Origin: an uncultured Candidatus Marinamargulisbacteria bacterium | GTDB taxonomy: Bacteria > Margulisbacteria > Marinamargulisbacteria > UBA817 > CACECR01 | DNA length: 42,945 bases | Assembly (NCBI GenBank): GCA_902558105.1 | Contig: CACECR010000006.1 | Coordinates: 1 to 42,945 of the forward strand | Reading direction: 5' to 3' | In this document: positions 28,452 to 28,545 of the stretch, piece after piece | Layout: every line of letters starts with the position of its first letter | Position numbering within the stretch: position 1 is the first letter of the stretch | Made by a program: the position numbers and the translations under genes | The notes under the pieces: model-generated | The model's database searches: none | What the model saw: only the letters and a program-made list of their open reading frames with translations | What the model was told of the DNA's origin: nothing

Positions 28452-28492
28452 AAAAAAAACAAGAGTGACTCAAATAGAGTCACTCCGTTTTT
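28452..28492. terminator. Bidirectional rho-independent terminator (GAGTGACTC-loop-GAGTCACTC)
   Basis: Perfect 9-bp stem 28463-28471 / 28477-28485; T-tract on both strands (CGTTTTT on +, TTGTTTTTTTT on -). Confidence 0.92.
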
Positions 28493-28534
28493 AGGGGGGC
28501 TTGTGATGTACTTTAATAATTGCATCTTTGATGC
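28452..28534 (-). ncRNA. Candidate small RNA, copy B: 5' hairpin + CATCACAAGCCCCCCTAAA + rho-independent terminator
   Basis: On the minus strand: TATAAT (28545-28540), hairpin GCATC-AAA-GATGC (28534-28522), 13-nt spacer, 19-nt motif (28508-28490), terminator GAGTGACTC-TATTT-GAGTCACTC-TTGTTTTTTTT. Confidence 0.55.
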
Positions 28535-28539
28535 CAACG

Positions 28540-28545
28540 ATTATA
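28540..28545 (-). promoter_or_regulatory. -10 element TATAAT for candidate sRNA copy B
   Basis: Consensus TATAAT on the minus strand a few nt upstream of the 5' hairpin; no strong -35 seen. Confidence 0.4.

What the first reader, a model, noticed from the sequence alone, without database searches (positions are those of the whole stretch)
28452..28545. Candidate new C-rich small RNA family, copy B (minus strand, between orphan giant genes)
Reading the minus strand: TATAAT, then hairpin GCATC-AAA-GATGC, 13-nt A/T spacer, CATCACAAGCCCCCCTAAA, then a 9-bp-stem terminator with TTGTTTTTTTT. The 19-nt motif is identical (19/19) to 4764-4782 on the plus strand, about 24 kb away, while the surrounding sequence is unrelated apart from the architecture. 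The 5' hairpin stems differ in sequence but keep position and pairing (GCATC/GATGC vs GCAA/TTGC), which suggests covariation. An unpaired C6 run between two hairpins is what an antisense-type regulator of G-rich ribosome binding sites would expose; the actinobacterial 6C RNA is a conceptual, not homologous, parallel.
Basis: partly seen in the sequence, partly recalled or inferred. Interest (0 to 1): 0.82.

Follow-up and report, generated by a model that had tools for sequence, protein, structure and literature searches.

The report
Twin sigma-54-driven anti-RBS small RNAs
Two short, nearly identical RNA genes in an uncultured bacterium appear to be switched on by the sigma-54 transcription machinery, and their exposed C-rich tip fits exactly over the ribosome-binding site and start codon of at least one gene, so they probably shut off translation of selected messages.

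Summary
The main correction is to the anatomy. The "5' hairpin" is most likely a sigma-54 promoter: TTGGCA-N7-TGCAAT with GG-N10-GC spacing, in register in both copies. A matrix from published Salmonella sites ranks them 2nd (B) and 6th (A) of about 86,000 window positions. The predicted start then falls at the 5' edge of CATCACAAGCCCCCCTAAA, giving transcripts of about 56-59 nt: an unstructured C-rich tip plus a terminator. Upstream of both lie ATTGTA-N5-TACAAT palindromes. The same palindromes precede a sigma-54 promoter next to the assembly's only clear sigma-54 activator gene (NtrC-type), and rpoN is present. The motif's reverse complement, UUUAGGGGGGCUUGUGAUG, reads as SD plus start codon. 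In about half of the assembly, the longest match outside the two loci is 13 nt over the SD and AUG of a doxX-family gene. I infer a trans-acting sRNA pair working like Vibrio Qrr. No homologue was found in the 73 other phylum genomes held, and no Rfam match. Nothing was shown experimentally.

The parts
28452..28510 (-). predicted sRNA, copy B (about 59 nt)
   Evidence: start inferred from the -12 C at 28522 plus 12; end at the T-run; fold -19.8 kcal/mol with unpaired 5' tip
28490..28508 (-). copy B C-rich tip CATCACAAGCCCCCCTAAA, antisense to SD plus AUG
   Evidence: 19/19 identical to copy A; 13-14 bp with the doxX start region
28463..28485 (-). copy B terminator stem-loop; T-run continues to 28452
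   Evidence: terminator scan and folding
   Evidence: GG-N10-GC spacing; 2nd of 85,856 window positions with the Salmonella matrix; the same gapped 12-mer occurs exactly only at A and B in the genome
28565..28581 (-). copy B activator-site-like palindrome ATTGTA-GTTTG-TACAAT
   Evidence: 12/12 symmetric; reached by 1 of 5000 shuffles
28603..28617 (-). second upstream palindrome of copy B, AATTGT-ATG-ACAATT (different spacer; role uncertain)
   Evidence: palindrome listing
4761..4816 (+). predicted sRNA, copy A (about 56 nt)
   Evidence: start inferred from the -12 C at 4749; fold -14.1 kcal/mol with unpaired 5' tip
4764..4782 (+). copy A C-rich tip, identical to copy B
4784..4816 (+). copy A terminator hairpin and T-rich tail
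   Evidence: folding; missed by the consensus scan
4734..4752 (+). copy A sigma-54 promoter TTGGCA-N7-TGCAAT
   Evidence: 6th of 85,856 window positions, 3rd among intergenic
4688..4704 (+). copy A proximal activator-site-like palindrome ATTGTATTTTTTAAAAT
   Evidence: 11/12 to the B palindrome
4657..4673 (+). copy A distal activator-site-like palindrome ATTGCACTTTTTAGAAT
   Evidence: 10/12; the pair of sites is reached by 0 of 5000 shuffles

Best explanation
Copies A and B are a twin pair of small trans-acting RNAs of about 56-59 nt, each transcribed by sigma-54 RNA polymerase from a -24/-12 promoter. Both are probably activated by the single NtrC-type response regulator found in this assembly, through ATTGTA-N5-TACAAT sites. 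Each RNA is an unstructured 5' tip, CAUCACAAGCCCCCCUAAA, followed directly by an intrinsic terminator. The tip is antisense to a whole translation start (G-rich SD, about 6-nt spacer, AUG) and would block ribosome loading. The best predicted target is a doxX-family membrane-protein gene (13-14 continuous base pairs over SD and AUG). Shown by computation: the duplicated unit, the promoter match, the shared upstream sites, rpoN and the activator gene, and the target complementarity. Inferred: transcription itself, which activator binds, and repression.
For: Only two copies genome-wide, sharing promoter box, tip and upstream palindromes in register while the terminator stems differ. Salmonella sigma-54 matrix (sites from PMC3844500) ranks B 2nd and A 6th of 85,856 positions, 1st and 3rd among intergenic ones. 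rpoN present. One clear sigma-54 activator, with GAFTGA, whose gene is followed by another sigma-54 box carrying the same palindromes. Palindrome pairs in A and C30 beat 5000 of 5000 shuffles; in about 480 kb only five sigma-54-like boxes have such a site within 260 bp, and A and B are two of them. The longest complement of the tip outside the two loci is a 13-mer on the SD and AUG of doxX; cofold gives 14 and 13 pairs with the terminators intact.
Against: No expression data. No homologue in the 73 other phylum genomes held. A and B score below the Salmonella sites in the matrix (9.3 and 12.4 against 15-24), and A has A after TGGCA. The energy-based target test is modest: 2 of 150 shuffled tips, or 6 of 150 with C6 kept, find an equally good start site, and good start-site pairings are not clearly enriched overall. 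Target scan covered about half of a 65%-complete assembly. Other activators may be missing from the assembly. No Hfq seen in the sampled half, inconclusive.
Confidence: 0.72

Rival explanations
1. One reading: a sigma-70 transcript of about 80 nt beginning with a 5' hairpin, then the C-rich segment and terminator.
For: TATAAT at 28545-28540 and a GCATC/GATGC stem in B.
Against: Copy A has no TATAAT in that place, and its 4-bp stem is not in the minimum-energy fold of the stretch tested (that stretch began inside the stem). The promoter scan of B lists no sigma-70 pair using that TATAAT. The conserved letters are exactly the sigma-54 elements.
Confidence: 0.12
2. TTGGCA is a sigma-70 -35 box (with TAAAGT in B as -10), so the start is about the same but sigma-54 is not used.
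For: Scan lists TTGGCA-16-TAAAGT in B, 9 of 12.
Against: Not listed in A; it leaves the conserved TGCAAT and the upstream palindromes unexplained.
Confidence: 0.06
3. The repeated unit is not an RNA gene but a DNA element, for example a recombination or protein-binding site beside bidirectional terminators.
For: Both copies lie between convergent genes, in inverted orientation on one contig.
Against: The conserved blocks follow transcription order (upstream sites, promoter, tip, terminator) while the terminator stems are unrelated; no recombinase was recognised among the window proteins examined.
Confidence: 0.06
4. The RNAs exist but act mainly as sponges or on RNAs other than doxX, for example the sigma-54-driven ast leader, which has a GGGGG segment.
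For: Predicted pairing of -14.3 kcal/mol with that leader.
Against: 38 of 200 shuffled tips pair as well with it.
Confidence: 0.1

Closest known systems
Vibrio Qrr sRNAs with LuxO
   Same: Several related sigma-54-dependent sRNAs under one response-regulator activator, with two palindromic activator sites upstream (PMC10162802); trans-acting pairing (PMC3262071)
   Different: Activator palindrome is TTGCAWWWTGCAA in Vibrio, ATTGTA-N5-TACAAT here; Qrr RNAs are longer and multi-stem (own knowledge); no Rfam match here; signal unknown here
GlmY and GlmZ (Enterobacteria)
   Same: sRNAs with sigma-54 promoters (PMC3844500)
   Different: Structured RNAs acting with RapZ on glmS (PMC7073468); only an E 9.9 chance-level hit to GlmZ
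RoxS / RsaE (Firmicutes)
   Same: C-rich regions pair with G-rich target sequences (PMC5419742)
   Different: Four C-rich regions in RoxS against one here; different host group; no Rfam match
6C RNA (actinobacteria)
   Same: Runs of six C exposed in a small RNA (own knowledge)
   Different: C-runs sit in two hairpin loops (own knowledge); no Rfam match; different promoter type

Membership tests
sigma-54-dependent sRNA (functional class) | GG-N10-GC promoter at -24/-12 | tested here: met
   both copies; matrix ranks 2 and 6 of 85,856
sigma-54-dependent sRNA (functional class) | rpoN and an activator of the AAA+ GAFTGA type in the genome | tested here: met
sigma-54-dependent sRNA (functional class) | upstream activator sites | tested here: met
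   palindromes in A, B, C30 and C3; binding not shown
sigma-54-dependent sRNA (functional class) | short transcript present and rpoN-dependent | not testable with these tools
   no expression data
Qrr (Rfam) | match to the Rfam family | tested here: not met
   no match at gathering score in the window, nor among hits up to E 10 at B
Qrr (Rfam) | LuxO site TTGCAWWWTGCAA | tested here: not met
   upstream sequences of A and B hold ATTGTA-N5-TACAAT-type sites instead
6C RNA | Rfam match; two C-loop hairpins | tested here: not met
   no match; one C-run, outside any hairpin
RoxS / RsaE | Rfam match and several C-rich regions | tested here: not met
   no match; one C-run only

The most novel reading that the evidence does not exclude
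A minimal 'anti-start-site' sRNA design: the whole RNA is a 5' tip complementary to a generic G-rich SD, spacer and AUG, plus a terminator. It is held in two copies under one sigma-54 activator that also drives an arginine-catabolism leader, forming a Qrr-like nutrient circuit in an uncultured lineage.
Probability: 0.4. Interest if true: 0.6.

Novelty: new member of a known kind. Interest (0 to 1): 0.5.

Why it matters
It gives a testable sigma-54/activator/sRNA circuit in a lineage known here only from assembled genomes, with a named candidate regulator, binding site, start point and target. It also shows that a pair of conserved promoter boxes can pass for a covarying RNA hairpin when only two sequences are compared.

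Tried and rejected
Rfam search of the window and of the element: no family. More copies by pattern with up to 3 mismatches: only A and B stand above background. Sigma-54 box plus C5 pattern over the phylum: 19 foreign hits against 5 control; nearly all lie in ORFs and none looks like an sRNA. Exact 16- to 18-mer scans of public genome and viral contigs: 3 and 4 hits, about what chance gives by my estimate; scored with the model, not pursued as homologues. Near-perfect AGGGGGGCTTG sites elsewhere in the genome lie inside ORFs, away from starts. Start regions of the giant gene 29363-33841 and of the small ORF 28857-29053 as targets: weak, not significant after many tests. Phylum name could not be established.

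Full report
OBSERVATION. The minus strand at 28545-28452 reads as described: TATAAT, GCATC-AAA-GATGC, a 13-nt spacer, CATCACAAGCCCCCCTAAA and a 9-bp-stem terminator with a T-run. The 19-mer is repeated exactly at 4764-4782 on the plus strand. With up to 3 mismatches it occurs only at these two places in the window (0.01 expected). In the 952,545-base assembly (65% complete) these are the only copies with up to 1 mismatch; the sites with 3 mismatches are near the control level (10 against 4). Rfam has nothing at these loci.

THE TWO COPIES SHARE MORE THAN THE 19-MER. Aligned, both have TTGGCA-N7-TGCAAT ending 10-11 nt before the 19-mer, and a shared ATTGTA-type block further upstream. TTGGCA-N7-TGCAAT occurs exactly nowhere else in the assembly. 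The terminator stems are unrelated in sequence.

THE '5' HAIRPIN' READS AS A SIGMA-54 PROMOTER. TTGGCA-N7-TGCAAT has GG and GC separated by exactly ten bases, the -24/-12 geometry of sigma-54 promoters (GG at -24 and TGC at -12: PMC3844500). I made a matrix from 24 intergenic Salmonella sites printed in that paper and scored every position of both strands of the window. B is second (12.4) and A sixth (9.3) of 85,856, and they are first and third among intergenic positions. Both score below the Salmonella sites themselves (15-24); A carries A instead of C/T after TGGCA. With the -12 C at 28522 and 4749, the start falls near 28510 and 4761, at the first bases of the tip. The predicted RNA is therefore the 19-mer plus terminator, 56-59 nt, with an almost wholly unpaired tip. 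The palindromic look of the promoter (GCA...TGC) explains the supposed hairpin; with two sequences the 'covariation' amounts to one changed pair and one broken pair. TATAAT is found only in B.

REGULATOR. The assembly holds sigma-54 (PF04552, C1:21503-21952). Among four PF00158 hits only one is a clear sigma-54 activator (E 4e-73): an NtrC-type response regulator with receiver, AAA+ domain carrying GAFTGA, and a Fis-type HTH just under the Pfam cut-off, at C30:3507-4856. About 170 bp beyond its stop, at C30:5026, lies another sigma-54 box followed by a structured, terminated leader of about 110 nt, and then an Aminotran_3 (astC-like) gene and astA. Upstream of B is a perfect palindrome ATTGTA-N5-TACAAT (centre about -63). 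Scoring this motif elsewhere gives 11/12 and 10/12 in A (about -65 and -96) and 11/12 and 11/12 in C30 (about -74 and -95). No shuffle of 5000 reproduces either pair, and the single B site is reached by 1 of 5000; the B figure is not independent because the motif was taken from B. A sigma-54 box on C3 has 12/12 and 10/12 sites 190-220 bp upstream. An hsp20 gene with a sigma-54-like box has none in the 170 bp upstream of the box. In about 480 kb of sampled genome, five sigma-54-like boxes have a site of at least 10/12 within 260 bp: A, B, C30, C3 and one weak box. That the C30 regulator binds these sites is inferred, not shown.

TARGET. The reverse complement of the tip, UUUAGGGGGGCUUGUGAUG, reads as SD, spacer and AUG. 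I scanned 420 automatically called genes' start regions from about 480 kb (half of the assembly; a few stretches overlap). The best, -26.3 kcal/mol, is a doxX-family gene (PF07681, E 1e-11; C5:21700-22122, minus) whose start is AAAAAAGGGGCUUGUGAUG: 13 continuous pairs over SD and AUG. That 13-mer is the longest match to the tip's complement in the sample apart from A and B themselves; my estimate of its chance occurrence in start regions is about 0.001. Energy-based controls are weaker: 2 of 150 shuffled tips, and 6 of 150 with C6 kept, find an equally good site, and the overall number of good start-site pairings is not clearly above shuffles. Cofolding gives 14 (A) and 13 (B) pairs with the terminator hairpins intact. 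The proposed action, blocking ribosome loading on doxX and perhaps a few other messages, is an inference. Hfq was not seen in the sampled half, which decides nothing.

DISTRIBUTION. A covariance model of box plus tip finds A and B at 68-70 bits and nothing above about 27 bits in the 73 other genomes held for the phylum. A looser sigma-54-plus-C5 pattern gives 19 foreign hits, nearly all in ORFs; one precedes a gene that I read as DUF2282-like from its sequence. This genome is the only member of its family held, so the pair looks lineage-specific, as sRNAs often are.

COMPARISON. It works like Vibrio Qrr/LuxO (sigma-54 sRNAs with two palindromic activator sites; PMC10162802), but it is not a member: no Rfam match, a different palindrome and a much shorter RNA. 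GlmY/GlmZ share the promoter type; RoxS/RsaE (PMC5419742) and 6C RNA share C-rich exposure. It is filed as a new sRNA family of a known kind.

VERDICT. The sRNA idea is supported with a corrected anatomy: sigma-54 promoter, start at the 19-mer, C-rich anti-start-site tip, terminator. Expression, regulator binding and repression remain to be shown.

Noticed in passing
L111 (G000:C30) 4949-5160: Two ATTGTA-N5-TACAAT-type sites, a sigma-54 box and a structured, terminated leader of about 110 nt between an NtrC-type regulator gene and an astC-like/astA gene pair; could be an attenuator or a third sRNA.
   Followed up: partly
L114 (G000:C3) 27-514: Two activator-site-like palindromes (12/12 and 10/12), a sigma-54 box at 264 and a 56-aa ORF with a strong RBS.
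   Followed up: partly
L113 (G000:C2:26434-26452, minus): Sigma-54-like box just upstream of a gene that reads as a small heat-shock protein (identified by eye).
   Followed up: no
L032 (G014): TTGGCATTTTTTATGCAAATATTCATCACAA, a sigma-54-like box, upstream of what reads as a dnaK gene (identified by eye).
   Followed up: no
L106 (G002): A sigma-54-like box and a CCCCC run precede a DUF2282/bufferin-like gene in a genome of the same order (protein identified by eye).
   Followed up: no
window 28857-29053 (-): Small unannotated ORF with a GGAGGT RBS between the giant gene and sRNA B; GAGGGGCCTG just after its start is a weak possible sRNA target.
   Followed up: partly
window 24888-24977 and 26955-27431: In-frame 30-bp and roughly 150/243-bp repeats inside the 1447-aa orphan protein gene.
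   Followed up: no
window 9055-9072 (+): The best sigma-54 matrix hit of the window lies inside an ORF of the mur cluster.
   Followed up: no
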